From Asterella californica (Eukaryota > Streptophyta > Marchantiopsida > Marchantiales > Aytoniaceae), in contig JAYKYS010000145.1 in the NCBI GenBank assembly GCA_036924285.1, positions 1 through 64,000 on the forward strand: DNA of 64,000 nt. Reading direction: 5' to 3'. The translations under genes were made by a program, and so were the position numbers. Shown here piece by piece: positions 7,945 through 58,706 of this stretch (positions within the stretch are counted from its first letter, which is position 1; the number at the start of each line of letters is the position of its first letter). Below the pieces are notes generated by a model. It made no database searches and was not told the origin of the DNA. It saw only the letters and a list, made by a program, of their open reading frames with translations.

Positions 7945-8444
7945 ACGTGCTGGCTACGATTCTGCATTCTACCACCCCACTTGTCGCAGAAGCTCATGCG
8001 GAAAGCGTGCGCTTCAAGTCGGGAAGGTGACCGACAAGCTAGCTTTAGCTGAAGCTATCGCACGGTAGCCCTTCCTCGACAGTATTACTCTGGTTGCTGG
8101 CCTGGTCAACTCGAGGAATCTGGGCTTCACTGGCATTAGGTTGAACTCTTTCAGTAAGCCCAAAAGCACCCGCAGCTGCGTTGCCAAGCACCTTCAGCAG
8201 GAATCTAGCCGAAGCCTACAAACTTGCCCTTCACGGCCGCCATTATTGGCAGCTTCCCACCGGACTGACAGGTACCTCGACGCAATAACAGTGTGCGGCA
8301 AGGCAGGCATCCTGTCCTTCGCTTGTCAATCGCTACAAGATGGGGATCGGTTGCAGCGCGCAAGACTAGTCTGCGCCTTTTGCCGCTCGCAAGTGGTATG
8401 CCGACATCGGCTCGGTAGCTACTGTGTCAGGTGACATCAGCAAA

Positions 8445-11400
8445 ATGAGGGTATATGCAGCAGTCGCCCTGGTGCTGTGCATTGGCCCATATGCACGTTC
8501 CTGGCATCGATGCACGTCGCCGATTGAGCGCCACGGCAATGGTGTCCGCGACAACTTCTCCGACATCACTCGACCTGGGCTACATATCCGGCAACCTGAC
8601 CGGCTTGAGCGCTCTCCCCAATGCAACAGCTGCGTCAACGGCGATTGTCTCGCTTGCTGAGATGAATTCCACATCGACAGTACAGACCATCGCAACTGGC
8701 TTTGCAGCTGTATTGATCAACGGAACGCACGGCAACGCCACAGGAGAAGCCTTGAGGTATGGCGCTGGCGAACACAACCAATTCTACTCAGCAAAACGTA
8801 GCACAGGGGTACGCCACAGCAATTCTGGCGTACTATGCTGCCAACTACACAAGGTAGTGCTGGTGAAGGAGTCGCTGCTTGATTGAACTGCACTGGTGTC
8901 TAATATCTGCTCTTGTTGCTTGCAGGCAGCAGCAACAGCAATTGAGTCCTCACTGAATGTTGGACAGACAGGAGTAGTGGAGGCTGCCAACTCTGCTGCC
9001 TTTGGCACATCCAATGCCAGTGCCATAGCAACTGCAAACGCCACTACTATCGCACTTGCTGCAGACAATGGCACATGTACTTCCTATCCAGTTGGGAGCT
9101 ATGGCAATGCCTTAAGCTCGGTCCTCAGTGATAATGACACAGAGGCTGCTGCAGCCGGCATTGCTGCAGGCTTTGCTCAGGGCTGCTGTGTATCTTCAGT
9201 TACAGCTCTGTCAGTGCTGGACCTTATTGCCCTTGATGGATGTACCAGCATCATTGGCGGCATTCTTCTCCGTGAGTTTGCTTCCTCAGCTTGCGTCAGT
9301 TTGACATCATACTGAACGTACAACTGTATGCACTGAATCATTTGTTTGTTGGACTTCTAAATCGCCAGTGTTTGAGAAGTCCTGCAGTGCAGTCTTGGTC
9401 ATCTGCCTTAGTGGACTGCAAACATCAGACGGGTGAGAGGTTTTACTAAGTGAAAACATGGTTCAGGGCATTCAGTCCGCAGCACAGTTGTACACTGGTG
9501 GGAAAGATAGGTCCTATGCCACCCTCTCGAAACCAAGTTGCAGGATCCACACGGCAATCATCCTTCTGCCAGCTATGACTGGATCATGATCAGTCCCCAC
9601 AACCCATGTTCTCTGTCTACCCCACACACGCAGCCTTTCTGCCTGTCTAAACCCCTTCCAGCCTGACCGGTTGCTTGTACCACCCCTTGCAGGAGCACAA
9701 ACTCTGGCAGGCACAACAGCACTGGCTATGCCGGTGGCTCTGTGCAGTTCACCACAGCAGCAGCCCAGTCAGTCGCCATTCAGCGGTGCCTGCAGGAGGC
9801 AAGAGTGAATGCAAGCATGCCTGCTGCTAGTGCCGCCACTCAGGCTAGAACAGCTCTGCTGGCTGGCACGCCACAGCTGCTGCCGATGCAATCCAGGCGC
9901 CCTGTGCAGTGCAGACACAGCCAGCGCCACAGCTGAAGCCTTTGCTGAGGTCATCATCAGCAGTTGTGGGCTGCAATGGGACAGTGCGGGGGAGCGCTTC
10001 TATGTACGCCTTCTCCTGTAAATCTCATGTTGTGCTCATGCTTTACGCATACTATTTGTGTTTCGCTGCATGTTGTTATTCTACTTGGCTGATTTTGCTG
10101 TGTGCATCATCACTTGATTCACAATTCACGGTGCAAATGCTTACTAGCTCATCTGCAAAGCAGCTAGAACTGGACAACTTATCTGCAAACTTGCTTGAAA
10201 GGAGTCTTTGGATGCTCTGCAGTCGCCAGTGCCAACGTGGAAGCCAGTGACACGATCTGTGGAGGGAGCTTCACATCCAATCTCACCGCCACCGCCATCT
10301 ACAGCGATTTCTTCAACTACCCATCCATCAACCAATGCCTCAACAGCCAAACACAAGCAGTCACTGTCAGCACCGCAGCTGTGGCAGCTGCTGTCCCAAC
10401 CCCACCCCCTCCTGGGACCACCCCTGCCCCTGGTGCCACCCCCGCCCCCACCATCATTCCCGCCACGCCAAGCGTCACTCCCGCCGGTCCTGTGGTGCCA
10501 AACACCCAACCGGCCCTGTTGCTTCAAGCAGCCAGACCCTACCCCAAGCCCTACTCCAAGCCAACAAACTCCAGCAGCAGCAACAGTACCGCTAGCAGCA
10601 GTGCTGCTGTGGGTGCAACCACCCCTGCTGCTCAGCAGCCTCAACCCCCTGAGTCAACCCCTGCAGCTGCACCAGAACCCAGCCCTGGTACTGCCCTGTC
10701 CCTTGCTTCTTCTTGTGCTGTTCTCATGGATGATCTGTGCCTGCATCTGTGTCGTCTGCATACTCGGTTGTGTTTGAGCTGTGTTGTGTCAACCTGTGCC
10801 ATTTTGGACGTAATACCGTGTGTACTGCAGTAACTGCGCTCTCCCCTACGCCCCCAACCCCTGCTTTGCCTCCCCCACCGGCAAGCATCCCTCCACCCCA
10901 GACCCCACTGCTGCCCCCCTCCAGCACACCCCGGCCCAGTGGCAGGCTTACCCCTGCAATAGGGGACAGCTCTGCTGTTACAGCCCCTAGAGCTACTCCC
11001 AGACCAGCTCCCCTACCCCCACCCCTGCCCCCCTGGGTCAGTCCCCACCCAGCGCCCTGCTGCCAACACCGCCACCACCCCTTGGCACATCCCCACCGGC
11101 GTGTTGCAGCATCCCCAACACCTGTTGCAGCATCCCCACCGCCTGTTGCAGCATCCCCATCACCTGTTGCAGCATCCTCGCTCCCCTCCCCACCATCCCC
11201 AAGCCTTGGTGGGGCATCCCCGCTCCCTTCTTCACCATCCCCAACCCTTGGTGGGGCTTCCCCATCTTCCCCTGCTTTAAGCCCTGTTTCAGCTCAATTA
11301 CCTGAGCCTGCATGCTTGAGCCTTCCGGCATCCATTCCGACCCCAACCCCAACTCCAGCCCTCGTAGCGGCAGGTACCAATGCTGATGCCACAGCATCTT

Positions 11401-14155
11401 TGCCATCCCCATCCGCATCCCCTACGGCTAGAGTGTGTCATTGCCAAGCTATCCTCAAACCCCCTCTTATACAATGTTTCTTCCCCCCGCACACCCGCTC
11501 TGCTGGCCCCAAAGTATCCCCTCCTGGCCCCCCTAGCATACCCGCTACACCCCCCAGCATGTCTCCTCCTTTCCCTCCCACCATTGCTACCACACCAGCT
11601 GGCAGCACACTGTCACCCCAACAGCACCTTCCCGTACTTCTTCCCCTCCCCGTCCCCAACAGCATCCCAAGGCCTAGTCGCCACCCCTTCCCTTTCCCCA
11701 GTTGGCAGCCGTGCTGGCTCAGTCAGTGCAGAGGCAGGTGAAACCTCAAGCTGGGGTATACACATCCTTTCAGCCACTCTTCATTGTGTTAGTTTTAGTA
11801 TCATTGACAAGGTGTGTATTTTCAGTATTGTTGAAAAGGTTTGGTAAATGGGATCAGGTCCTAGCTAGGTGCGTATAGCGGCAATCAACTGTCGGTGGGG
11901 CTGACTTGACTTGGGCTTGTATCTTCATCACTGAATTACATCATCAGTACATGCTACCCCGAAAAGGTTCAGTCAAGTGCATGATTGCCACATTTGGGTG
12001 TCAAGAGTTTCAAGGGCATATACTGGCTCACTGTTTGGCTGGTCCTTCAGAGATTTGGGTATCAAATTTTTGCGCACATATCTGCAGCTGCCCACGTCTT
12101 GTTTGTGACAATCATAGCAGCCAATGCTGATATTGCTGTTCCATACAGGCCGCAGAAGCAATAGTGTTCCGTACCCTTGCGCGCATCTCTTTGTTTGTGG
12201 GGTTGTTTGCAGTGTTGACATAGAGTGATCGCACTGCATGTTTATCAGGCATCTGTAGCCAGCACATGACAACTGACATCTACAGCAGATGGCTGGCAAT
12301 GCTGTCTGCATGTCACCACTACACAAGTGCTGATGATACATAGTACTAATGATACATAGTGCTGATGCGTGGTGTTTTGTATTTGCAGCAGCGGCACAGG
12401 CTGCAACCCCATCCCCAACCCCAGCCGCCACCCCTGCTCCGACAACAGCCCCCACATCAGCCCCCACATTAGCTCCCACCCCAGCTGAAACCCCAAGCCC
12501 GACCCCAGCTACCACAGCAGCCCCAAGTGTGTTCCCTTCATCTTCGCAGTCTGCACCCCCCATACCCACCCCCATTCCAACCCCAGGAGCCACTGCTACA
12601 CCCCCCGCCCCTGTTGCAAGCCCCTCCTCCAGCCCCTCTGCTGCTTCATCTCCTGCTGCAACTCAGGCGCCCATCCTTGTCCCTACCCCTGTCCCTACCC
12701 CTACCCCTGTTGCTACCTCTGACCCTAGTCCAGCTTCCCCTACCCTCCCCCCTCCCCCTACCAGTGCTGTTGTGGCCACACCCAGCCCCAGCCCCCCTCC
12801 CAACCCCATAAGGCCCCCTTCCAGCCCCAACCCCCCTCCCAGCCCCCGCTCCGCCCCTGCTCCATTCCCAAGTACTACTGTCTGCTCCAACTACCAAGCA
12901 TGTGTCACACACACACTCTTATGTATTTGCATTGGCTTACTGCCTTCTGGCTGTGCAAGTGCTGTGCCACAATGTTCTTGGTGTTTGATGGCAATTTGCT
13001 GAAAAGTGAGATGCTTGCATGTAGCCACAATGGCCAGTACGTTGCTTGCTGGGCTGTACATGCATACAGCTGCTGTTACATATTTTGGCATGCCCAATGT
13101 ATTAATGTGTGAATGGCTGGTGTACAGGTGCTACGCCTACACCAGTTGCAGCACCCACTGCTGCACCCACTGCAGCAGCAACTGCAGCAGCGACTACAGC
13201 AGCAACTGCTGCACCCACTGCAGCAGCCACCCCATCTCCCACGCCTACTCCACAGGTAACTGCTGCACCAACAGTGGCACCAACCTTGCCCCCGCCTCCA
13301 CCCCCCACCCCAGCTGCCACCCCTGAGCAGATCCCTAGCCCTACCCCTACCCCAGCCCCTAGGCCCTCCCCGACCCCAGCTTCAACCCCAGTTCCAACCT
13401 CCACTCCTGAAGCTACGCCGCCGCAGACTTTGGCTGCCACGCAAGCTCCAGTGGAAACACCATCCCCGACCCCACCCCCAACCCCATCCCCATCCCCAAC
13501 ACCATCCCCAACTCCCTCACCCACAAGTGTGGCAACGCAGGCAGCAACCCCAACCCCGACCCCGACCCCCAGTCAGACCCCCCCAGCAACTGCAGCCCCC
13601 ACAGTGGCTGCCACACCACCTCCAACCACAGCTCCAACCCCCCAGCCCACTTCAGCTCCAGCACCCGAGGTAACACCAGCCCCAACCCCAGCCCCAACCC
13701 CTAGCCCCACCCCAGCAGAAACACCTGCACCCGCCCCGTCCCCCGAACCTACTGCGGCTCCCACAGCTGCACCCACCCCATCTCCTACTGAGAGGCCTTC
13801 CCCACCCCCAACCCCAGCAGCTACCCCAGCGGCCACGCCAAGCCCCGAGGTAACCCCAGCAGCTACCCCAGCAGCTACCTCAGCACCTACTCCCGCTCCG
13901 ACGCCCTCCCGTACCCCAGCCTCCACCCCTCCTCCTCCCCCTGCACCCACCCGGGCGCCTACCCCCCAGCCAACGTCTACCCCAACCCCCTCTGTCAGCA
14001 AAGCCCCCTCGCCTCCCCCTCCGCCCCCAGACTCCCCACCTCCATCCCCAGAGCAAGCTACACCCCCTTCAAACTCTCCAGCTGATTCCTCGGCTTCCTC
14101 TACTTCAGCTTCATCTGATTCCCCAAGTTCGTCCTCGGCAGCATCCCCCACTTAG
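8445..14155 (+). CDS. Secreted Ala/Asn-rich and Pro-rich (hydroxyproline-type) glycoprotein
   Basis: Probably a wall or extracellular matrix glycoprotein. The start [14 protein letters not shown] looks like a signal peptide; the mature frame is reached only after a one-base shift near 8466-8487 (for example one C fewer in a CCC run). Exons approximately 8445-8850, 8926-9275, 9692-9990, 10195-10710, 10840-11740, 12390-12890 and 13127-14155. The N-terminal part is rich in Ala with many N-x-S/T sequons (NLT, NAT, NST, NGT). From about 10390 the product becomes (S/A/T)P dipeptides such as [14 protein letters not shown], typical O-glycosylation substrates after prolyl hydroxylation. The end is Ser-rich ([13 protein letters not shown]). 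No catalytic domain, GPI signal or membrane anchor is visible. Resembles algal HRGPs in composition; I do not assign a named family. Internal exon borders are uncertain because Pro-rich DNA is open in several frames. Confidence 0.75.
11850..11887 (+). repeat. Dispersed repeat copy A (core CCTAGCTAGGTG)
   Basis: GGGATCAGGTCCTAGCTAGG followed by TGCGTATAGCGGCAATCA, within an intron of the Pro-rich glycoprotein gene. Two similar copies in the same orientation occur at 19955-19994 and 32193-32232. Confidence 0.6.
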
Positions 14156-23580: not shown

Positions 23581-24159
23581 GTCTTTACCTGACTGACGTC
23601 CGCAGGGGACGGGTTTGCAACAGGCAGGAAGCAGCACCTGAAGGGCCTCGCAAGCACCTTGAAAGGCCGGCAAGCCCTCTGCAAGCAAGGACGGGTTGGC
23701 ACATAGTGCGCGCACACGTGCAAGTTGAAGTGGCTTCCGGCATGTCAAACCCTCAAACGACGTATTACCTTCAGGAAGGGCTTCATACGCCCGCAGCGGT
23801 CACGTTGCTGACGTGGGGGCTGACTTTTGAAAGCTATGCAAGGCAAAAGCATACTGACGGGCTATACCCGACGACTCGGCAGTCTTGCAAACCCTGTAGT
23901 GAGTCAATCCCATAGACGACAGAGCAAAGTCGTCACTGCTGATAGTGCAGATTGTACCAAATATCGCGGCAAGGTTCAGCGCAGTTTGCTTCAGCGTTGT
24001 GCCGTTGTGTGGAAGGCTCCACCCTGACCTACCTGTATGGCGAGCGTTGACGTTGACTAATTCAGGAAATAAAAGACAAATTGTGATTCGAATTTGCGGT
24101 TCTGACATATGCACAGTCATAAGTATGCGCGTGAGTGCACATACTTGTGGCTAACCAGG

Positions 24160-24433
24160 GTTTGTTTGGCTTGCAACAGTGGTGCTATTGGCGATGAAAA
24201 GCATATGCTTTTTAAGTGTGCTGCCCTGGCTCCTTTGAGGCAGCAGCATGCAGACCTGTTCACACCTTGCACTGACACCATGCGCTCCTTTTTCGCTCAG
24301 CAGGACCAACTTGGGGTTTTGAACTATGTCATAGACTGTCTAGACTTCATGAATATATGACATTATTGCCATGATTGGCACAAGTGATCAGCCTTGTTGG
24401 CTGCCGGAGCTTGTAAAATTCTTCTTCTTCTTC
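24160..24433 (+). mobile_element. 5'-truncated LINE copy with (TTC)n tail
   Basis: The last 66 or so codons of the reverse-transcriptase ORF plus a short 3' region. It reads VCLACNSGAIGDEKHMLFKC and ends LDFMNI-stop at 24358-24360, and is nearly identical to the end of the longer copy at 42917-44473, including the 3' UTR and a terminal CTTCTTCTTCTTC. The upstream flank is unrelated, so this is 5' truncation as expected for target-primed reverse transcription. No clear target-site duplication seen. Confidence 0.85.
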
Positions 24434-24742: not shown

Positions 24743-27700
24743 TCATGAGTGCTGTGGTGTCAACTGCGGCCATATGTACTCATCACTCTGAGGTACGAGG
24801 CTGTCTATCCTACCCATTGGGAGCAGTGAAGCTCCTGAGTACTGTGGTGTCAACATCTGAATTTCCTGCACCTTGGCTTCTTGTGATTGTCCTGCCTCCC
24901 CAGACAGTGTTGTCTTGCCTTGCAAGGTGCTCCCAGCAAGCAGACTGATTGCGTATGTAATGGGATTGATCTTCTCCTTCTGTGCATGCCATAACACCAC
25001 CACCAGGCATTTCAGCATTGCTAAATATGATGCTATGATGGCAGCCACAAAAAGGTCTGTTGACAGGAAAATGCCGTGATCAGGTTTGTTCCCAAGGGAA
25101 AACAGAACAGAGTTCAACAGGACTGTTGGAAAACTTTGCAGCACAGCAGCAACTGTATTGTGCATGCGTTCATAGTTGTTCAGATCTATCCAACCTAGAC
25201 CAACGCCACCTAGAGCTTGAACACTACGCTGAATTTGATGAGCACAACTGTACACACCCTGCCAGTAGGTCCATGTCTGCACTTTGGTCACCACTTTCAA
25301 GCACACCATGATTTCATGCACAAAAGCAATTGTATCTAGCAAAAGCACCACCGGAATAACGCAAGGAGTCAGAACAACAGCCAAAGAAAGTCGGAGCCAA
25401 GTAGAGCAAAGTCTGTCGCTGGAAAAGTATGGCATTCTTACGAGGGCCTGAAATGCAACAATGCCGCCTGTTGCGGCAAAGTGAACCAACAGAATTGTAA
25501 GCAACACTGCAGCTGGCCACGTGCCCCACACTTGCACGTGCCCCACACTTGGACCAGCACCATAATGCTTGTAGTCAGATCATAATAGTAAAAGGATAGC
25601 CCACCAAGCCCATACAGTGCTTTGTACATGGTGTGTGCAAGCATGGAGGCTCTGACAAAGAGTGCTGACTGCTGAACTTTTGCAGACATGACAGACTGGG
25701 ATGCTGATTTGTGCCTCAGCAGCAGATACCCACCACAATGATCACACAGCAGGCAACAAACGTCAGCCACAGGGCGATGACAGCTTTCCGTGAGCTGGAG
25801 TTTGCACACAGCACTTGCACGGATGCAAGCTGGTTATGATACAGCTGCAGGAGTTGCAACACAACATCAGCTGTGACATCAGAATTGTTCTGCACCCATT
25901 TGGTCCAGTCAGTGAAGTTAGCATTGGTGGGATCCAGTTCGTGGGTGGACAGGCCACCGACAAGCTCTGGGATTTGCAGCAGCTGCTGGCCAGTGACATC
26001 TGCATTGTAGAGGTCTTTCTCTAGGCACAGTGTCTGCCTCCAGCTGTTGAGTGCTAGGGACCTTCCCCACATGCTGCCAACATTGAGGAAGGTGACGTGT
26101 GACAGGAACTCGCCCAAATGCAGCCAGGACAGCGGCACTGTCCCCTTGCAGAGGGTTTCCATCCAGGTTCAAAAGGTGAGCTGGTCCAGTGTTGTAGGCT
26201 GATCAGGCAGGAAGCTGGCGATGTCATTGCCTGAGAGTGACGCTGCGAGCAAGGTGGACGTGCTGTTCCAGAAGCCGCTCAAGTCTGCGCTGAAGTGGGC
26301 ATTGTCCATCTCGATGACGCTGAGGTTTGTGTTGTGGAAGGCTGGGATGGGGCCGCTGAGCTGGGTGCTGGCAGTGTGCAGGCTTGCAACCAAGGGAACG
26401 CACTTGCAGAGCTCCAGCTTGCTGGGATGCTGCCGCTGATCAGTGTTGCTGACAGCTGCAGCTCCTTAAGGTGTGGGAAGGCCCCGACAGCCATACCCCA
26501 GCTATCAGGCAGAGTCCCACTGACAGTGGTGCCATACAGGAACAAGTTCTCCAGCACAGGGTAGGCAGTTGGGCTGCCCCAAGCGGCTGGAAGGGGTCCA
26601 GTGATGTTCAGCCTGTTGCAGTCTAGGTAGAGGAGACATGGGAAAGCACCAGGCGCCGCCCAAGCGGCAGGCAGCTGCCCAGTGAAGGCATTGTTGCCCA
26701 AGGCTATGGCCTGCAGCTGCTGCAGCTGGCCAAGCTCGCCAGGCAGGGTGCCGGCCAAGGAGTTACCATTGATCTGTAGTAACTGAAGCTGGGAAGGCCA
26801 TGTGGGCGGTAAGGTGCCAGAGAGGCGGTTCTTGAAGAGGAATAGCTGCTGTAATCCAGGGGCAGAGTTGGAGAAGCCCATCCAGTGGGGATGGAGCCGC
26901 TGAGTTGGTTGTCTGACACGTCAAGGACTTGTAGTTGCGCTGGCAGGGTGTAGGGTAAAGAGCCTGTGAGCAGATTGTGTGATATGACCAGGGTTGTAGC
27001 GCTGGAAAGGCACCTGCAGGTAGCATTTGCAGTGTCTGAGGTTGTACTGCAATGTTGAGCAGTGACTTGAACATATGATGAGAGACATATGCTGTAAGGC
27101 ATCGTGACAGAAGCTTTTCTATGCGAGATACTTAGCAGTCTTCAGCAGTGCAAGAAATCAGAGGCAGCTGTCGACACGAAATGGCTGTACCTGATTATGA
27201 GTAGCAAATGCATCATTACGACTTACCCAAACCCCACACAAGAATGGACAAACCTGGACAAGTTGAACAAATCTAGCAAAATTCCACAAGCAAGACCTCG
27301 ACAGCTGCATCAGGCTGCATAGGGAGCAGCATGAGGGAGCAGGACACGGAGATACCTGACTTGCCCCAGGATGCTGGGACATTGCCCCTCAGTGAGGAGT
27401 TAAACATAATGAGTGCTTGCAGTCTTGGCCAGGCCCCTTCGTGCTGACTCGCAGAGTCATTCGTGGGTCTGTCTTGTGGGTACAGGCTCTGCTGCTGCTG
27501 AGCAGGCTGGTCACGGCTTGCTGAAAGAGTGTTGGATTGTGCTGTTTGCTGGCCAGAAAGCGGCCAGTTGTTGATCAATGCCAGCTCTACTAGCTGTGGA
27601 AACGCCGCCTTACTCCCCCAAGCAGTCGGCACAGCAGCTGAGATGGCTGTGTCGTGGATGCGCAAGGACTGCAGCTGTTGGAAGGAAGCAGGGCTGGCCC

Positions 27701-37883: not shown

Positions 37884-38527
37884 TGTCCACCAAAAGGAAA
37901 GTCTCCAGCAACTCAGGCAGCGAGGGAGTCCGCTGTTTCACTGCAAGTCGCTACAACTCCCTCGTTTATGGGTATATTAGGCCTCGCTGTTGCAGCCAAA
38001 AAGAGGTGGATGGTGATCTAAACAACCAATGCACCGCTGCTTCGATGTCGATGCCCCTGCACAGGTAGACCAACCAGGCGCCAACGCTGCGCAACAAGTG
38101 CTTCACCATGCTGGATCAACAACATACACGTGACATACATTTTACTAACAACTCTAGACTTTTAGCAGGCAGCAATTCAGCTACCTGTATATATTTATGG
38201 TAATTCAAACTTGGAGCTCACAATCTACCTACATTGGCCGGTTTGCCAGGGATTCCCTAACCTGATCAAGGGAGAAAGCAAGACAGGGTACGTATGCACC
38301 AATGGCATAGCTGTTGCCTGTGAGTTATATGCATGGTCACGAATGCTAGCTCCTCAGCCACTCAGGCAACCGCATGCTGCTCTTTCCAGAAACACTGACA
38401 CATCAATCCTGTGTCGATGCAGGTTTGCAGCTTTGTCTGTTTTAGAAGGTCAGTAGGCTAGTCGTGGATGGTATTTCTTTAGTGAGAGCATGATCTTTAT
38501 CTAAATCTGTTCTTCAATTTGTGACAA
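37884..38527. other. EHD upstream region
   Basis: Promoter-side DNA of EHD, up to the left terminus of the 6.2-kb TIR element. No second gene start or recognisable control motif found. Confidence 0.4.
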
Positions 38528-38720
38528 CATCCCTAATTTTGGGGGGGCGTCATGGACGCTTTGGGAGCGTCCCCTTCTGAAGACGAGAATTGGGACGCCC
38601 CGTTTTTAGCCAGACGGTCCAGGGACGGTGCTTTCCTGGAGCGTCTGCAAGACCGAGCGTCCTACGACGCTCAACTTTGACGCTGCGCCATGCACGCTGC
38701 ATTTCAGACAGTCCTTTTGC
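38528..38720 (+). repeat. Left TIR and subterminal GACG array
   Basis: Eleven GACG/CGTC words in about 170 bp, several paired as short inverted repeats (for example GGACGCTTTGGGAGCGTCC). Counterpart at 44493-44688. Confidence 0.75.
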
Positions 38721-39499
38721 AGACATTTTTTCCGAAACGCTCGAGTAACGCCTATGAGTCTCTGACTGATTGAGGAGTATGTTACTACTTTGTGTTATGA
38801 CTGGACCTTGTGCAGCATCTGCCAAAAAGTTCTCTCAGGTTGCCAAATTACTTGACAACACAATTGCAATACATGTACAGTATTTTACAAACACCTGAAG
38901 CACAGCTCTGTATTATGAGCCTAACAGTCCTGTGCATCAACCTAATTTTGACCCACAAGACTCATTGCAGCGCTGCTAGCTAGCCAGCATGTGCAAGTCA
39001 AGATTCCTGAATCCTGCTGTAGACACTGCGGCACTTCACAAACTGAACACTGGAAGTATGTCGCTGGATTGCATTGGCAGCTAAACTTCCTCTTTGATTG
39101 CAAATTCCAAGCACGAGACATTCTCTTGCAGCTCTTATACCTGCGAGTGTGCGTAAACTGCAGTCTCGATGCATACACGGCACAGTTGCAAGTTGTGTCT
39201 ATAAGTCAAACAGATTGTTTGTGTTACTGCTGCAGAATTGCATCACGGCCTAGTGCAGATACTGAGCAACTTCAGAAAGCGCAACTGCGGTGTAGAACAC
39301 TTGAATGCATAACCTCTTGCTTCTTGTTCTACAGTCACGACAAATTCAATTTGAGCATCAAATGCTTAGTTATGCCCAAGATGCTGAAAACCAGCATGGT
39401 CTTGGGTATGCTAAGAGGAACCAGCCTGAACAGGCCATAGTGTGTTTGAGCATCAGCAACATCAACAAAGCATCAGCTGGAAGCAATGCATTATAATTT

Positions 39500-40015
39500 G
39501 AGAAATCACCTTGGCTGTCAAGTCTGTCAAAAGCTGTGGGGTGCTACGTTTCCCGGCGTGCTCTGGGGCACGCTTGTCGACAAAGCTTTCCTTGCTGTTG
39601 CACTCTGCATACTGGTTCACCGCCATATGAATGTCCTTTGTATCAGGCTAGGGGCGTAGGTGGAACACGGGCTTGAGAAGTGGGTACAACTCCTTCTCGA
39701 TCTTGCTGTGTAAGCGCAGATCCTCAAGCCCCTGCACTGCAGCCTCCTGCAAAACAAGACTTTGCATGAGTTTGCCACAGCAACACTCGTTTGCAGCACA
39801 GCGGTTTTGGTTTTCATTGCAGCCTCCGACAAAACTAGACTTTGCATGAGCTTGAGAGCCTCACCTGACCAATTCAAGCAATCTGTGATTTGTCGCAGAA
39901 TGCCAGAAATGTCAAAATCTGCAAAGCTTCAGTGTGCATTGACTGATGTTGTATCTAGCTAGCTCTGAGGGCTACCTGCAGGTCGCTCCAGAGCCTTCGC
40001 ATCAGCCTCCGCCAT
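39500..40015 (-). CDS. Candidate exons, unknown product (low confidence)
   Basis: On the complement, a possible first exon 39976-40015 (MAEADAKALERPA then a GT donor) and a further open stretch after an acceptor at 39746 reading VQGLEDLRLHSKIEKELYPL, an in-frame TAG, then DTKDIHMAVNQYAEC and on. The phases of the first two pieces do not match and the TAG follows a CCCC run, so the model is incomplete. I recognise no family. It lies inside the TIR element, so it may be cargo or a remnant. Confidence 0.25.
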
Positions 40016-41092
40016 TGAGTTTGTTCTCTTTGTCGCCTGTCTCACTGGTGCCTGCAGCAAGACTACTCAGATGCACCCTATCATAGTTCTACTGTATAGG
40101 TCGACAAGCTGCACATACCTTGAGCATTGAAAATGGTTGATCTGAGCCTCTGCATTGCCCTGCAATCAGTCCAAAAGTGATTTCCTGCAGGAAATCCCTG
40201 ATTGTGTTGAGTTTTTGCAACACCTTCAGAATAGTGGACCTTACCAGTGGGCGTCAGTGCTGGGGGGGGGCTTGCTGGCCATCCTTTTGCTCTTGAACTG
40301 CTGCTCAGGTTTCTGTACTGGCAAACACTGTATTGTTGACATGCTGGAACGCTGCTAGCAAGCGCTTGGCTTGTACATGGCCTTCTGCTGAGACTGCGTG
40401 GCCACAAAATTAGTCTGCTCTAGCAAGACACCTGCCTGTAAATCCTCTATGAACAGCAAGTTTTCAATGCTTAAAGTCAAGTATACATCTGCGACAAGGT
40501 TGTGTCATTGGAACCACAGGACAGGAAGATGCATTTTGAATGAGCTGTTCAACACCTACTTGAGGGCCTCTCAGGCGATGGTTGACTGAATAATCCTGGC
40601 AGTTGTTTTGTGATCAAATGATACGCTATGGTTGGTAACGATGGTTGGTAACAGTGTTGCTGAAGATGAGTGGCTCAAGAACACGCAAAGTCAGCTGATC
40701 AACCTCCATCATGGTGAAAGTGCCAGAGTCCACTCGCTCGGGCTGTGTGCCTCAAAACAAGATCCTGCATTCAAAGTCAGCTCAAAGCGAATGTTTGGAT
40801 TGCTAGAGCCTACACAACGACAGGAACTTGCAAGTCAGCAGGAATTTCCTTACAGTATAATGAGTAGTCCAACTGCCAGGCAGCCCTTTTGTTTTTATAG
40901 CTGCTGTTGTGTGAGACTTCAGCCATGCATTCCAGCCAACACTCAGTGTTGGAAGCAATGGCTGTATCTAGTTGTTCCCGCTCCTGCATTGCACATCAAA
41001 CTGAGCTGATCCACTTCATGGGAGAGGTTGTGCAGGCTGCAGACACAGTGCTGCTGCACCATGCGACTGAATGACAGATGTTGCGTGCTTAC

Positions 41093-41308
41093 CTCTGCCA
41101 AAGTATCTAGCCTTTGAAAGAATTTCTGTTCGTGATGCACAGCGATCAGCACCCAGTGATCTCGAGGGCCAGAGCCCCTAGCGCTGATTAGCGTTGGAAG
41201 AATGCCTGCATCAAATATGCTCTTTCTTGACCCGGTGAGCGCCAGAACTTCTATGTCAGTGATCGATGGGGCCTGGTCAGCCCAAATGCCCTCCTCACTG
41301 TCGTCGTC
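41093..41308 (-). CDS. Candidate internal exon, unknown product
   Basis: A 216-bp open exon bounded by a good acceptor (CAG) and a good donor (GTAAGC) on the complement, in phase at both ends: DDDSEEGIWADQAPSITDIE ... SRKSIFDAGILPTLISARG ... FFQRLDTLAE. No family recognised. Position inside the TIR element makes it a candidate transposon gene. Confidence 0.4.
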
Positions 41309-41935
41309 CTGACCACGATGTGCGGGGGGGTGGCAAGGGTGCAGTGAGTCGTGTGTAGTACGTGATCGGCAGTAGCATACACATACATGATACAGCAATG
41401 TTGCTTGCAGAGGCAGAAAGCTGTTCGGTCAGGGGAGCACACGATTTCTCAGCGACCAGCCTCCAAGCTGTATTTTGGATCAGCAGAGAAGGAGTTCACA
41501 GGTACAGATCTGTTGTCAGCAAGATACCTAAGCCCTTGATGAAAACCCTGCATATTCTACATATCTGTGCACACAGGTAGCACAACTTCCATCAGAGACA
41601 AGGTGGCATCAGTTCCATCACTGCAGCACTTTGGCTAGCTGGGCAGCTTTACAGGGTCTACAAGTGCCTGTCATGCAACAGGTCCTTGCTACGGCTGTTG
41701 CATATATGTGCAAGCTGACAATGTCAGCAACACACAGCTGAATTCTTGAGAGCTGCCTGGCAGCATGTTTTGGTCAGAATTATTGGAGTGAGTGATACTT
41801 GTCATATTCATTCTGGAACAACAGTCGTCGCACTGTAGTGTCTCGATACTGATCATGCCTTCTTGTCCAGTTTGCCCAAGCTTGTGTCTGCTCTTTAAGG
41901 GCTTGTGCAGAACACATTTTGATGTTCTGCTTTAG

Positions 41936-42127
41936 GTTGATGTTAAGCGCACACTTGGTGTGCCCTCTGCTTATGGCACAGCAGATGTAATGCGGGGACG
42001 TCCTGACCTTGTTGGCCGTGAGCGCAAATACGCATACTATGGTGGAAACAAGCACTTGATCCTGGATGATATCCAGATTCAAGGCACTGCAGCTGATGGA
42101 CCAGGTCTGGAGACATGGTTTGGGCAG
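41936..42127 (+). CDS. Candidate internal exon, unknown product
   Basis: Exactly 64 codons between a TAG acceptor and a GTCAG donor: VDVKRTLGVPSAYGTADVMR, then RERKYAYYGGNKHLILDDIQ and GLETWFGQ. Composition looks strongly coding. I recognise no family. Partners may lie at 42513-42761, where both strands are open and I could not decide between them. It is inside the TIR element. Confidence 0.4.
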
Positions 42128-42916
42128 GTCAGTCTGCTTGCGCCCTGGTCTATGCTTTACAACTGGTGGATTTGTACCTCTGCATTCTGATTTCCTTGTC
42201 ACAATGCCACGATGCAAGGCAGACTTCTGTAATCTCAGCATGCAGATTTGCCCAGTGTGTATCAACAGGATACTTGGGTTAACATTGTATCCCCTGCACT
42301 GATGATGCAAGGCTGCATTTCAAGATGCAATTGCTACAATGGGATTACTGGTGTTGCAGATGCAGCCAATAATGATATCATTGGTCGCAATATGCATGCA
42401 AATCTGTAAAAGATATTTGTGTTTCAGAGCCATCCAATGAATGCAGGTACATATGCTGTTCTCTGTTCCAATGGCACACAACCTTTAGCCGCAAGAATCC
42501 TCTGACCAGCACTTGGCTTTTGTCTGGTTTTACAGCGACAATGATCATGTTCAAATCAATAGCAAGGCTGAGGACCTGAACATGCTGCACTTGAAGTGGG
42601 AGACTATCAAAGTCAAGCTCGGAGCTTATTGGCGTGTTATACCAAGCTATGTTGTGGTAGACGTTACTCACATTGTCCAAAATGTCTGTGTATGCCCGCA
42701 CTTTGCATTGTGGAGGAAGTTTGATGAGGACCCAAGGAGTTTCAAGGAGTCTCTTGAATGATGTTTTGGACTTGTGGCCCAATCTGGAGCGCATCCCCAG
42801 GGATCAACTGCAGCCTCGACAGCAACAAGCAATGGAACAGCAGTACCAGACAAAGGGGCAGAAGCAGTACAAGCAACCTGATGATTCTGTTGCAGCAGAA
42901 TCACAACCAGCACACT

Positions 42917-44473
42917 ATGGGATCTCCTTCGCCGGCTGGGGGTGCAAGGCGCCATGCTGGGCGCCATACAGTCCTTATATGATGGGTGCCTGCTCTCCAT
43001 GAGGGTCAATGGAGTCACTGGGGACAGCCAAACCCCCTCCATGGGGTTGCGGCAGGGCTGCCCCCTCAGCGCCACCCTGTTTGGCCTCTTCATTGATGGC
43101 CTGCACCGCTACTTGGAGACTGCCGTTCCTACGGCTGGAATCCAGATTCTGCAGATGCGGCTCAGGGAGCTAGTTTATGCTGATGACATTTGTCTCTTGG
43201 CTTCCTCGCCGGAACAACTACAAGCCCTGATTGATGCCTTGGCTGCTTACTGCGCTACTCTGCAAATGGAGATTAGTGTGCCGAAAACAAAGGTCATGGT
43301 GGTGTCAGTCATGCCTGCACCAGTTGCGGCCTTCACATGCAATGGCAATCCTGTTGAGCAAGTTGCCACCTTCAAGTACCTGGGACTTCATTTCCACCAG
43401 TCAGGCTCTATTGCGCACCTTATCACGCCAATCAAGTCGAAGGCTGGTGGCTCTTGGGCGGCTGTTCAACGGCGACATTCCTTGCTTCAATGTGGCAACA
43501 CCATCAGCCTGCATTTGCATTTGTTGCAAGCTATCCTGGTGCCTGTTTTACAGTATGGGTGTCAGGTCTGGGGTATGCATAGCCCACGTGTTGCTGCTGC
43601 TAATGATGCTCGAGCTGCATTACAACGCTTGAATGATTACTACCTCAGGACCATTTGCCGTCTTTTGCCATCCACTCCTCGCAAGCTTTTGCTCACAGAG
43701 TTGGGCCTCTTGCCTTTGCAAGTGTTTTGGTGGCGCCAAACTCTGCAATTTTGGAATAGTTTGGCTGGTCTTCCTGTTGGTTCCCTCTACCATACTGTCT
43801 GTCTGGACAACCTTGCCGATGCCTTTCAAGGGGGTGCTTGCAATATGGCTGGCTCATTGGCAGCATGTTTACATTCAGTGGGTTTTCAGATGCCTCGCGT
43901 GCATGATGTGGTGCCATTGGTGGATGTGGATGGTATTGTTGAGGCATTGACTGAGCGGTTGCAGAGTACAGGATCCGGCGGTCTGTATTGTCCTCGTGCA
44001 GCCCCCACTCAGGGTGTTGTCTCATGCACATACGAGCAGTGGTTCAGGCCTTTCAGCCCACGTAGAAGGTATTGTCAGCTTCCTGTTTCTGGAAGGCGCA
44101 TGCAGCGTTTTTTGCAGTTTAGGCTGGGCTGTCATGGCTTACCGGTTGCTACTGGCCGTTTGGCTGGTGCTGGCCATGTAGACAGGGCTAACAGAGTTTG
44201 TTTGGCTTGCAACAGTGGTGCTATTGGCGATGAAAAGCATATGGTTTTTGAGTGTGCTGCCCTGGCTCCTTTGAGGCAACAGCATGCAGACCTGTTCACA
44301 CCTTGCACTGACACCATGCGCTCCTTTTTCGCTCAGCAGGACCACCTGGGGGTTTTGAACTATGTCATAAACTGTTTAGACTTCATGAACATATGACATT
44401 ATTGCCATAATTGGCACAAGTGATCAGCCTTGTTGGCTGGCCGAAGCTTGTAAAATTATTCTTCTTCTTCTTT
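42917..44473 (+). mobile_element. Non-LTR retrotransposon (LINE), 5'-truncated, with reverse transcriptase
   Basis: One ORF open from before 42942 to 44396. Seen: SMGLRQGCPLSATLFGLFID (RT motifs 3-4), YADDICLLAS (catalytic motif with two Asp), KTKVMVVS and a FKYLGLHF block (thumb entry), then a C-terminal CCHC-type knuckle CLACNSGAIGDEKHMVFEC. The RT fingers, endonuclease and any ORF1 are missing, so the copy is 5' truncated; the left border is approximate. The 3' UTR ends in ATTCTTCTTCTTC, a (TTC)n tail shared with the copy at 24160-24433. The ORF has no stop, suggesting recent insertion. Clade not assigned. Confidence 0.85.
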
Positions 44474-44688
44474 CAGGCGCAGCGCCTTTCAGGCTTCCCG
44501 TTGGACGGAGCGTCTTGGGACGCTGCCTAGCAGGACCGTCCCACGAAAAGGTCCGTCCCAGGGACGCTCAAAGGAAGGCCTGTCCTATAACGTCTCCAAG
44601 ACGGGGCGCCTACATAGCGTCTGAAAAGCTTGCCAAAGACGGGGCATCCCGTTACCCTTCTTGAAGACGCTTGCCAAGAATAGGGATG
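44474..44688 (-). repeat. Right subterminal GACG array and TIR
   Basis: Eleven GACG/CGTC words in about 180 bp, followed by CCAAGAATAGGGATG, the inverted counterpart of the left terminus. It directly follows the (TTC)n tail of the LINE copy. Confidence 0.75.
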
Positions 44689-45264
44689 AAGGTTGGCAAA
44701 AGCTTTGAACTTCCTCTCCCTCTGTTCTGTCAGCATAAGCCCAAAGCATGCAATCTCCCCTCCTCAGAAGTATTGCTGGCATGTTTTGCTCAACACAAAC
44801 CTTGTACACTATTTACAGCAGAGTCAGAGCTACACCTATGTCAGTCTCTGCTTCACCTGTTTGAGGGGCGGGTAAGGCCTGTCAGACCCTGATGCGATGT
44901 CATGCACTGCTGACTGATCATCATGATCAGACCGTGACATGCTTTGCAGACAATCAAGTTATGCAGAATGAGTATCAGGCAAGTTAGTCAGAACAGACAA
45001 GATAGCTGTATTGGCCTCTAAGGAAAATGCCCCAAAAAGCGCCATGCTGAACAGCCTGAGGATATACGATGTTGCCGCTGGCAAGCATGCAAATCTGTGA
45101 GTCGAGATGTGTAGCAATGATAGAAGGTATGATCAGATGATGACTTGAGACAGTTGCTGCGGACACGTGTCAGGCTTTGCAGCTGCAGGTGCCTTCAGCA
45201 AAAGAGTTGCTTTGCAGTGTCCGGCATCATCAGCCTGGCATCACATGCCAGTACTACAAAGCTT
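44689..45264. other. Spacer between TIR element and UBL-LRR gene
   Basis: No exon with support. It should contain the 3' UTR of the complement UBL-LRR gene. Confidence 0.4.
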
Positions 45265-47711
45265 TTAAATGGGTGCCCAATGCTGCCATTGTGCCGCATC
45301 TGCACCCTCGTTGAAGCCGTCTGATGGAGCCATGACATGCATATCCATCTGCGCTTGCACAAGCAGTGTTATTGCCCAGTGAAAAGGCCATTGGCAAACA
45401 CTAGACGGTTTTGGTACTCACAATGGCCAGGGCAGGAGTTGAAGCACTGCAGGCCCAGTTGGCTAATATTTGCTGAATTGCTGTGCTGACAACAGCAGTG
45501 GCTGTGAGTGCCCCCACCAGTAACGCATGCAACAAAATGAGTGTGGTTAGTACAGTGAGTCATGCTTAACACAGGACAGGGCCTCTTACTTGTTTGCTGT
45601 ATTTGCCACGCCGTCGCTCATCAAACACATTGAAGCCTTTCAGGTCACGCAGAGCAGCAGCTGTGATGGGGTTGTTGTGGAGAGACAATGTGAACAGCGA
45701 GGTACATTCCAAAAATATCTGTGGCGGCACAGAAGACAGCCTGCGGCGCATGCAATCAATATGGGCTGTACTTGTACTTTGCTGATTACATCAGTGTTCC
45801 CAGCAGAGGTTGTTTCAGCATTAGGAACAATAGCCTGCAATGCTGGAATTGCATCATTGCCCAGATGATCAGTTGCCACAATCAGGGGCAGGAGAGGGGC
45901 GTCACGCTTGAAGTGTTACCTGTTGCTGTCAAGCATAAGAGTCCTCAAGCTGTGCAAGTGGCAGAGCTGACTTGGCAGAAATGCAAGCTGGTTATGAGCA
46001 GCATCCATCTCTGTCAAAGCCTGGCAGCAGCTCAACTCCTGCATGTCATGATTGCATGCCTAATCATCTGGATCATATGCATGATCCTTTGCCTTCAGTT
46101 TGTCCCCCCACAAATGTGCAGATCCTTGCGTGCCCAGCAGCAATGTTGTTAGTTTGCACAATTTACTTTACGATTTACGGCTTGCTAATGAAGTTGCTAG
46201 CATCAGCAAGCCGTGTGAATCGACTCTGATGCTACTATGACATGCTTCTCATGCCAGCTCAGCACACAAACCCCTGATACGTTAAGAGATAAGTGTGCAG
46301 AGGGTGTGAGTGGGTGTGTACGAATGGTTTGACAATGATAATGGTCACAAGAGTTAAGATGCATCCCTGACCTGTGGAAGCTCTTGTAAGGAGTTGTTGC
46401 GCAGATCCAAATGCTGCAAACTGGTCAGCTGGCCGATGCGGCTGGACAGCCCCACAATGGCATTGTGGGAAAGACACAGCTTCTGCAGATGCCCTAGCTG
46501 CCCTACAGCATCTGGCAAAATACTCAACCTGTGGAAGAAAGCAAGTCTGACATTAGAAATGCTACAGTTTATTACACCTCACACAAAAGTGGTGCACATG
46601 GGCATGTGAATGACCTGACATTATGTACATGGCAGATAGGTGCATATTTGATGCCTCAAAGACAATACTAAACTTAGCATAGTCCTCAGCTAGAGAGAGA
46701 CCAATGACAAAGCATAAGCAGATTGAACAGTGTGACTTGTGAAGACCACAGAGGGTAGCAATATGCCATGCTGTAGTTTGATGATGACCAGTATTGCCTT
46801 ACACAATGCATAGAGCAGACCTGTTGTGATCCACAGCCAAGACCGCAAGCTGAGGCATGACAGCCAGGGCAGGCCATGGAAGTCCATCATCAGATAGCTG
46901 ATTGTGGCTCAGCCTGAGTCGCTGAAGGGCTGAAAAGGCTGTCAGGGATGTTGGGATTGACATCAACTTGTTGCCACCAAAGTCTGCAACTCGAATTGAC
47001 GGCCCTATGGACCACAGCTCCTCCGGCAAGCTGCTCAGCCGCTCATCACGCAGTGATGCGATGCCCACTGCAGCCCAGCGCAAAGCTCTGTCCTGACACG
47101 GAACAAATGTTGATTGTAGGCTGCCAAGGCTGCCAGATTGATTGTTGTTTGAGGGCAGTCAGAGAAGCCTGCTGCGTTATACCTGCACAGTCATAGCTGG
47201 AGCAATCTTGTCGATCCTGTCTTGCTTCTGCTTGAACACCTCTGCCCGTTGCTGTGCTGCAGCAGCTTTCTCTTTGATAACTTTCTGCACAGCATCTTGG
47301 CCCTGCAAATGTGCAGGCGCTTTTGATGACAGGTGATGCAACCAGACTTGGTGTTGTTGCAGCAGTGACTAGGATCAGGAGCTGTATCTGCCTCACCTGT
47401 GTTTGACCTCCGGCTGTCATCAGCATGAGCTTTGAGCCTTGTTTGAGATTCAAACCCTCGACAGTGCTTTTTGAGTCCAAGACTCTGCCTTGACAGATGA
47501 GTTTCTGCTGCCGTACGGGGACTCCAGTGAGCTGTTCGGTGATCTGCAAAATTTCCAACATCCTGGTGTCTTGTTTCACCGTTACTTGATGTGTACACTT
47601 GCCATGCTTCACGTGTAGAGTCAGCATCATTCGGTACGCCTTTGACTTTGCTTGATCAATCTGCTGCGCAGCATGCTGGCTGGAACTTCCAACGCCAATG
47701 CAATGAGTCAT
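45265..47711 (-). CDS. Ubiquitin-like domain plus leucine-rich repeat protein
   Basis: Matches the plant family annotated as LRR and ubiquitin-like domain-containing protein; the function is not established. Start MTHCIGVGSSSQHAAQQIDQ at 47711. N-terminal ubiquitin-like fold: MLTLHVKHGKCTHQVTVKQD, PVRQQKLICQGRVLDSKSTV, GLNLKQGSKLMLMTAGG. Then a helical exon (DAVQKVIKEKAAAAQQRAEV, about 47200-47310), then LRRs on successive exons: LSSLPEELWSIGPSIRVADF and LQRLRLSHNQLSDDG (46799-47083), LSILPDAVGQLGHLQKLCLS (about 46390-46530), LPSQLCHLHSLRTLMLDSN (about 45920-45990), LSSVPPQIFLECTSLFTLSL ending FDERRRGKYSKQ (about 45590-45740). The last exon reads MDMHVMAPSDGFNEGADAAQ, matching the family tail, with stop at 45265. 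Starts 294 bp from the divergent ZIP gene. Confidence 0.9.
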
Positions 47712-48005
47712 GAAATGCCAATCGACACCCGCAGAAGCGTCACTTTCGCAGACATAGCGTGAACTTCATAGCAGATCTGACCCCAGACAGTTCGATCGGC
47801 GCTTGCAGCTGCACTGCCTATGGCGCTGAACATGTGACCATGCAGCATATATTTCTTAGACATATATTTCACAGACCATGCATGTAGTCCATCGACCATG
47901 CAGCATATAAAGCACCATGTAAACCAGACCCTTGCGTTAGCCACTCTGCGGAGACTCACATAGCGATACAGATAGCGCGGCATGGAATGAGTATTATCTA
48001 AAAGC
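47712..48005. promoter_or_regulatory. Shared divergent promoter region (UBL-LRR / ZIP)
   Basis: 294 bp separate the two start codons, so both 5' UTRs and core promoters must fit here. It contains a near-duplicated segment, GACCATGCAGCATATA at about 47839 and 47894. No TATA-like or other core motif can be assigned with confidence. Confidence 0.5.
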
Positions 48006-56991: not shown

Positions 56992-58706
56992 TTAGACATC
57001 AATTTCAAAAGGATCTGTCTGTACTGTTTCCAGAAAATTAAACTTACCAGGTGGCTTGTTATGCGCCTCTACCTGTGGCAGTGTTGCTCTCAAAACAAGC
57101 AATGTATCGTAAATCCACATCTGATAAGGGCTGGGGTGGCACCAGTGGGTACAGTCATTGTGACCAGGGTTTTCATGGTAATGATGATGGTACTTCCAAA
57201 CAGGCAGCGTTTTGTTCCATGTTTCCACCAGTGGGATTCCAAGGTATTCCATCATAGGCCTGGCAGCCTTGTTCCTCCATCCCCCTTCAACAATCAGCTC
57301 AAGCTCCTCTGGCCCATTTCGGTGAACAATGTTGTCATCATCAATGGTGATAGAACCTAGCCCCCCCACCAGGGTCCCAAGTGGTAGGCAATCCCAAGAC
57401 ACTGGATCTGTGAAGTAGTTCCCAACTGGCGTGTTGAAATGCTGTACTGAGCTGTCTCGCCAGAGGAAAAACGGCAGCCGTGCCTTGTGCTCGTGATGGT
57501 AGTCCACAAACTCCTGCATCTCCCTTGTGTAGGTTTCGACATCATTCAGCCACAAGCCGACATTGAAGACAACGATGTCACTGCGGTTCATGGTCAGCCT
57601 CTCATAGTCAGGCAAAAGCCTGACCATCTCTCCCGGAAAGTTGACACGTAGATGGCAGAGGCGAGTGTCTTCAGGCAAGTGCACACACCAACCACCAGGC
57701 ACCCTGTCACGCACATCTTCCAGCTCCTCTGCTGCTAGATACTCTCCTCGAATGTCATGCACGGTCATGTCCCAAAACTCCATCATGAAGCATTGCAAGC
57801 CCCTCATGAACTCCTGACTAATGGAATCTCCTGCCACCCACAGGGTGCGTCCTCTGAGGTATGGCCAGATGTCACATGGGGTCATGGTCAGCATGGCTTC
57901 ATAGCCAGGTGCACCTGCCTCTGCTCGGGAAACCAAGTAGCGCCAGAAATGCTTCTGATCATGTGCTGGACAGACAGGGCCATTGCTGAGGTACTGGCAC
58001 ACATTCTGCCAGACCCCCTCTGGTTGGCAGTTGGTGCACTCTGGCTGCCTCTTCCCTCCAAGCAAATATGGCTTTTGCTTGAACCTTCTGATGTGTGAGT
58101 ACCTGCACACCATGCAACACACAACAGTGTTATAATTGACATGCAGATTGTGCAGCACACAACATAATGGCAACAGCTGTGCTGAAGCACAGCATCGGAA
58201 GAAGAACCTGCCAACACGTGTATGTGTGTAGCTGTTCTGGTTGTTGACACGGAGCTGACAAAAGGTAAGTGCAAGCAAATTGCATCTGAGGTCTGCAGGG
58301 TGAACTTAGAACACTGTGCCATCAGATGACCCAACAAGCCAGGGAAGACAGGTATGCAAACTTACTTGATGCGATTGTACTTGACAGGGCAGGAGCTATT
58401 GACAGCAGCTTCATCGTGCTGCCAGCTTGCACGTGACTTGGCATTGGGTGCATAACTCTTGAGCTGACTGAACAAACTGTCTGTAGGGAAGACCTCATTG
58501 GCAAGCACCACATTCACCAGATGGCCATAGTCTGTGACATCTGGTTTCACATGCAAGCTGTTCACTTGGGCTGTGTCTGTATATATCCAGCCAATCAGTG
58601 CCAAAACCACAGCTGCTATTAGTGCAAAAAACACCATCAGCAGTGTCTTCCTGCTCCGCTTGCCCGCCGGGGCACCTTTTGCTGGACGGGCCAGCAAGCG
58701 ATTCAT
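56992..58706 (-). CDS. PC-esterase / TBL-like Golgi membrane protein, copy 1
   Basis: Type II membrane protein with an SGNH-type esterase domain; plant relatives (TBL/PMR5) O-acetylate wall polysaccharides, so glycan acetyl or ester transfer is likely but the substrate is unknown. Complement exons 58366-58706 and 56992-58102, phases agree, 483 residues. Start MNRLLARPAKGAPAGKRSRK; membrane anchor TLLMVFFALIAAVVLALIGW; Cys-rich entry PYLLGGKRQPECTNCQPEG; nucleophile block TLWVAGDSISQEF (GDS); DIVVFNVGLWLNDVETY; LPFFLWRDSSVQHFNTPVG; catalytic dyad block HNDCTHWCHPSPYQMWIYD. The sequence before the ATG ends in CATTACAG, so a 5' UTR intron is possible. Same fold, motifs and intron position style as the gene at 60565-62109, transcribed in the opposite direction. 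Confidence 0.88.

What the first reader, a model, noticed from the sequence alone, without database searches (positions are those of the whole stretch)
38528..44688. 6.2-kb TIR element with mirrored subterminal GACG arrays
Seen: imperfect inverted termini (CATCCCTA... at both ends) and 11 GACG/CGTC words within about 180 bp of each end, a density far above the surrounding DNA. Subterminal word arrays are known transposase-binding platforms in CACTA and hAT elements. No known transposase was recognised inside, yet there are three well-formed exons of unknown family. This could be an undescribed transposon family.
Basis: partly seen in the sequence, partly recalled or inferred. Interest (0 to 1): 0.75.

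Follow-up and report, generated by a model that had tools for sequence, protein, structure and literature searches.

The report
Broken algal-type DNA transposon family
The 6.2-kb stretch is a real but damaged jumping gene of a small family not recognised here, probably moved by an enzyme made elsewhere, and it sits on a contig that seems to come from a second organism in the assembly.

Summary
CATCCCTA (38528) and TAGGGATG (44681-44688) each occur once in the window, with 11 GACG/CGTC words beside each end; outside the element, and in 200 Markov-1 simulations, no 180-bp stretch exceeds 6. It is a mobile element: the own genome gave 3 left and 5 right ends with CATCCC borders and differing flanks, including a second two-ended copy (C29, 3753 bp). 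Both two-ended copies have a 2-bp target duplication (AA; AC). That argues against hAT and KDZ and fits the CACTA/EnSpm-Plavaka (CMCT) clade, nearest PlavakaB (CATCA..TGATG, 2-3 bp). One 'exon' is a later LINE insertion (about 42914-44470). The element's own coding parts are remnants: a plus-strand gene end with relatives in other assemblies and a stop shared by three copies, and a minus-strand exon whose homologue matches Peptidase_C48 (Ulp1). No DDE transposase was found. Best reading: a non-autonomous family moved in trans; superfamily unproven. All six copy-bearing contigs are under 84 kb. Fetched small contigs resemble the window in composition and the chromosome-scale contigs do not, so the window is probably from a contaminant or symbiont.

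The parts
38528..44688 (.). whole element, 6161 bp, including a later LINE insertion
   Evidence: borders fixed by 3 left and 5 right ends
38526..38527 (.). target-site duplication AA, left
   Evidence: 2-bp match; 3 to 9 bp do not match
44689..44690 (.). target-site duplication AA, right
38528..38542 (+). left terminal inverted repeat, CATCCCTAATTTTGG
44674..44688 (-). right terminal inverted repeat, CATCCCTATTCTTGG on the minus strand
38548..38682 (.). left subterminal array, 11 GACG/CGTC words
44504..44669 (.). right subterminal array, 11 GACG/CGTC words
41090..41308 (-). minus-strand exon-like ORF; its homologue P0007 matches Peptidase_C48 (Ulp1), the window exon itself does not reach a Pfam match
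41936..42127 (+). plus-strand exon A (64 codons), relative P0005
42441..42914 (+). plus-strand gene end, relatives P0001-P0004 and P0006; contains an in-frame TAG shared with the C29 and C770 copies, and a frameshift specific to the window relative to those two
42914..44470 (+). 5'-truncated LINE (reverse transcriptase end) ending in a CTT-rich tail, inserted into the element; at this place C29 and C770 have 539 and 561 bp of other sequence

Best explanation
A decayed, non-autonomous copy of a cut-and-paste DNA transposon family with CATCCC..GGGATG termini, 2-bp target duplications and dense subterminal (A/G)GACG(C/G) words at both ends. A transposase made by another element, not found here, most likely binds the repeated words at each end, brings the ends together, cuts at the CATCCC borders and inserts into a new site, duplicating 2 bp. 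[quoted passage not shown] Shown: copies, borders, 2-bp duplications, arrays, broken genes, LINE insertion. Inferred: movement in trans, word binding, CMCT kinship.
For: Multiple copies with sharp CATCCC borders and differing flanks; second two-ended copy on C29 with matching interior; 2-bp duplication in 2 of 2 two-ended copies; flanks single-copy in the assembly; word arrays above chance and kept in copies; no Pfam match in all six frames of 38528-42914 with stops read as X; the same TAG in the window, C29 and C770 copies, so the break probably predates their spread; dN below dS in only 4 of 15 exon comparisons between copies. PMC12730594 (passages): CMCT lineages mostly have CA..TG termini and 2-5 bp duplications; PlavakaB has CATCA..TGATG and 2 or 3 bp.
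Against: No transposase was found in any copy, so the clade is unproven: own-genome searches gave 0 Plavaka and 0 KDZ matches, though no control rang in either; 150 scored Transposase_21 matches all lie on contigs far longer than the element's. The C460 copy, with only 13 bp of left end inside a palindrome, has no matching 2-bp duplication (GC / GT). C770 and C100 lack a recognisable left end. Two 2-bp matches can arise by chance (about 1 in 256 before choosing the length). The fifth terminal base is C, where PlavakaB has A. dS and dN rest on few changes (0 to 15 per comparison).
Confidence: 0.55

Rival explanations
1. The family belongs to a superfamily other than CMCT, for example a distinct lineage of algal TIR transposons that carries an Ulp1-like protease on the opposite strand; the resemblance of termini to PlavakaB is convergence.
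For: No known transposase domain in the element; 0 Plavaka and 0 KDZ matches in the own genome; the plus-strand protein has no Pfam family and only 6 relatives among 172 candidates.
Against: Absence is weak evidence: the copies are broken, the second organism is represented only by small contigs, and the family controls did not ring. Termini and duplication length fit CMCT.
Confidence: 0.3
2. A hAT, KDZ (Zisupton) or Mutator-type element.
For: Subterminal word arrays also occur in hAT elements (reader; general knowledge); Ulp1 domains occur in Mutator and Ginger1 elements (PMC2836005, passages).
Against: Duplications of 3 to 9 bp do not match in either two-ended copy, whereas hAT makes 5-8 bp and Zisupton 8 bp (PMC12730594 passages); KDZ gave 0 matches in the own genome, with no control ringing.
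Confidence: 0.07
3. Not a transposon: a segmental or tandem duplication of host sequence with chance termini.
For: Low copy number; C770 and C100 copies are one-ended.
Against: Sharp borders at CATCCC in 3 left and 5 right ends with differing flanks, two two-ended copies with 2-bp duplications, arrays at both ends far above background.
Confidence: 0.03

Closest known systems
PlavakaB lineage of Plavaka DNA transposons (CMCT clade)
   Same: CATC..GATG termini, 2-bp target duplication (PMC12730594 passages)
   Different: CATCC instead of CATCA; no Plavaka transposase found; Ulp1-like remnant on the opposite strand, not mentioned in that paper's text (0 occurrences of 'Ulp1')
CACTA/EnSpm elements
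   Same: CA..TG termini, short duplication, subterminal repeated words (the last recalled)
   Different: CATCC not CAC(TA), 2 bp not 3 bp; no Transposase_21 in the element or among 150 scored matches on small contigs
Ginger1 and Mutator elements with Ulp1 domains
   Same: an Ulp1-like protease in a DNA transposon (PMC2836005 passages)
   Different: there, for Ginger1, Ulp1 is a C-terminal domain of the transposase; here it is a separate minus-strand exon and the duplication is 2 bp
EnSpm-Plavaka elements of the green alga Auxenochlorella
   Same: shows that this lineage occurs in green algae (PMC12636532, one passage)
   Different: sequences not compared here

Membership tests
[quoted passage not shown]
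   CATCCC..GGGATG in 3 left and 5 right ends
[quoted passage not shown]
   2 bp in 2 of 2 two-ended copies; the rearranged C460 copy does not show it
[quoted passage not shown]
   none found in the element in six frames, but the copies are broken and an autonomous one may be missing from the assembly
PlavakaB | termini CATCA..TGATG | tested here: not met
   CATCC..GGATG, fifth base differs
PlavakaB | Plavaka transposase (PF18759) | tested here: inconclusive
   0 matches in the own genome; no control rang
hAT | 5-8 bp target-site duplication | tested here: not met
   no match at 5-8 bp in either copy
KDZ (Zisupton) | 8-bp target-site duplication | tested here: not met
KDZ (Zisupton) | KDZ transposase (PF18758) | tested here: inconclusive
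   0 matches in the own genome; no control rang
Plant CACTA (Transposase_21) | Transposase_21 (PF02992) in the element | tested here: not met
   no Pfam match in 38528-42914; none of the 150 scored own-genome matches lies on the element's contigs
LINE (only for 42914-44470) | reverse transcriptase RVT_1 | tested here: met
   60.5 bits against cut-off 29.6; 95% copy of its 3' end at 24149-24433

The most novel reading that the evidence does not exclude
A superfamily-level new lineage of TIR transposon in an alga-like organism: 2-bp duplications, CATCCC ends, GACG platforms at both ends, a transposase-associated protein with no Pfam family and an Ulp1-like protease read from the other strand.
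Probability: 0.15. Interest if true: 0.6.

Novelty: new member of a known kind. Interest (0 to 1): 0.35.

Why it matters
It adds a well-bounded family with two-sided subterminal word arrays to the small set of DNA transposons whose ends could be tested for transposase binding, and a CMCT-like set of ends from an alga-like organism. It also flags that this contig and its like probably do not belong to the organism that the assembly is named for, which would mislead any annotation of that genome.

Tried and rejected
Transposase searches in the element and nearby: Pfam on single ORFs, on relatives, on six frames of 38528-42914, and on six frames of L036:2900-7400, beside the C770 copy: apart from RVT_1 no match reached its curated cut-off. 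Own-genome family searches: Plavaka 0, KDZ 0, Transposase_21 150 scored, none on the copy-bearing contigs. A search for long relatives of the plus-strand protein gave 51 candidates and no match; viral contigs none; the PDB gave no relative of P0007. The structure model of the plus-strand protein end was worthless (mean pLDDT 38), so no fold search was made. A TIR 15-mer pattern with up to 1 mismatch gave 94 hits against 112 for the reversed control, so the 15-mer alone finds no further copies; the 24 hits fetched from large contigs have no similarity to the element and no array like it, at most 7 words in 180 bp. An empty site was sought with the joined window flanks; only the window's own two flanks matched. 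A paper search for CATCCC with 'terminal inverted repeat' and 'transposon' listed one bacterial paper, so this set of ends was not found in print; Repbase could not be searched. The likeness of the plus-strand protein end to Plavaka transposase ends is from memory only and was not tested.

Full report
WHAT IS THERE. The finding's coordinates are exact. The termini CATCCCTA (38528) and TAGGGATG (ending 44688) are each unique in the window, and 11 GACG/CGTC words lie beside each end. The densest 180-bp stretch outside the element holds 6, and 200 Markov-1 sequences of the same length reached 3 to 6. In context most words read (A/G)GACG(C/G). The arrays are alike in density, not in order: only the outer 15 bp or so form an imperfect inverted repeat.

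IT IS A MOBILE ELEMENT. The own genome gave 3 matches to the left end (window, C244, C29) and 5 true matches to the right end (window, C770, C29, C460, C100; the other 26 of 31 rows match only the LINE tail included in that query). All start at CATCCC, and the sequence outside differs between copies. C29:63685-67437 is a second two-ended copy of 3753 bp with matching interior but without the LINE and without 38935-40194. The C244 copy runs off its contig (97.8% over 38528-42146). Duplications: AA in the window, AC on C29; no match at 3-9 bp in either. The window's flanks are single-copy and no empty site was found.

WHAT DOES NOT FIT NEATLY. C770 and C100 have right ends but no left array in 29.7 and 18.9 kb. 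C460 keeps 13 bp of left end in the middle of a palindrome and has unlike flanks, GC and GT. So ends do occur alone in this genome, presumably through decay or rearrangement.

WHAT IS INSIDE. (1) 42914-44470 is a LINE end: RVT_1 at 2.4e-16, a CTT-rich tail, and 539 or 561 bp of other sequence in C29 and C770 at that place. Its 3' end has a 95% copy at window 24149-24433. (2) A plus-strand gene end, exon A 41936-42127 and the stretch 42441-42914: 6 relatives among 172 candidates from other assemblies, no Pfam family. The window, C29 and C770 copies share one in-frame TAG, and the window also carries a frameshift that C29 and C770 lack. (3) A minus-strand exon, 41090-41308: one relative, P0007, 73% identical over 85 residues, which matches Peptidase_C48 at 22.5 bits against a cut-off of 20.7. 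The window exon alone gives no such match, and the PDB gave none for P0007. In the own genome this exon is found in the same 4 copies only.

IS IT ALIVE? Between copies, dN is below dS in 4 of 15 exon comparisons, equal (no change) in 1 and above in 10. Counts are small: 0 to 2.5 synonymous and 0 to 15 non-synonymous changes. There is thus no clear sign of selection on the proteins between these copies. With the shared stop, this suggests that already broken copies were moved by a protein supplied in trans. That step is inferred.

HOW IT PROBABLY WORKS. Repeated subterminal words are known in CACTA and hAT elements as transposase landing sites (reader; general knowledge). By analogy, a transposase would bind the GACG words at both ends, pair the ends, cut at CATCCC and insert with a 2-bp stagger. 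Which transposase? PMC12730594 (passages seen) says that CMCT lineages mostly have CA..TG termini and 2-5 bp duplications, PlavakaB having CATCA..TGATG and 2 or 3 bp, while hAT makes 5-8 bp and Zisupton 8 bp. A CMCT, Plavaka-like mover is therefore likeliest, but no DDE domain was found in the element, and Plavaka and KDZ searches of the genome gave nothing, with no control ringing. EnSpm-Plavaka elements are reported in a green alga (PMC12636532, one passage).

WHERE THE WINDOW COMES FROM. The assembly has contigs of up to 54.8 Mb and many small ones. The six contigs with copies measure 36.6 to 83.7 kb, and all 26 LINE-tail rows are on contigs of 23 to 98 kb. Loci from small contigs (25 loci, 75.5 kb) have 49.3% GC, CpG o/e 0.44 and tetranucleotide correlation 0.97 with the window. 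Loci from large contigs (24 loci, 72.4 kb) have 41.6% GC, 0.79 and 0.15. The sample is biased: the small-contig loci were chosen by a shared LINE tail, the large ones by a TIR-like 15-mer, and one large-contig locus (L052) is intermediate (0.56). All 150 scored Transposase_21 matches are at positions beyond 200 kb in their contigs (150 of 215 candidates were scored). The simplest reading is a land plant, by Transposase_21 (recalled association), with a second, alga-like organism in the small contigs. The alga label rests on the look of the window's genes and is not tested. It follows that copy number is a lower bound for that organism and that the missing autonomous copy may lie outside this assembly.

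VERDICT. Real, a new family of a known kind, broken in the copies seen; superfamily open.

Noticed in passing
window 1-64000 (contig G000:C64): The contig's composition matches other small contigs and not the chromosome-scale contigs; probably a contaminant or symbiont in the assembly.
   Followed up: partly
window 24149-24433: 95% identical copy of the 3' end of the LINE that sits in the element; short tail matches on many other small contigs.
   Followed up: partly
L037 about 7990-8700 (G000:C460): A large palindrome whose centre holds 13 bp of the element's left end, joined to element interior on both sides.
   Followed up: partly
L005 about 2728-2910 (G000:C29): The C29 copy has about 180 bp of extra sequence just after exon A that the window lacks.
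   Followed up: no
window 10168-14152: Long proline/threonine-rich reading frames with strong GC skew; no Pfam match for the two ORFs tested.
   Followed up: no
window 47049-47765, 56995-58305, 26282-26920: ORFs with Pfam ubiquitin (44.7 bits), PC-Esterase (25.2 bits, just under its cut-off 27) and leucine-rich repeats (46.1 bits).
   Followed up: no
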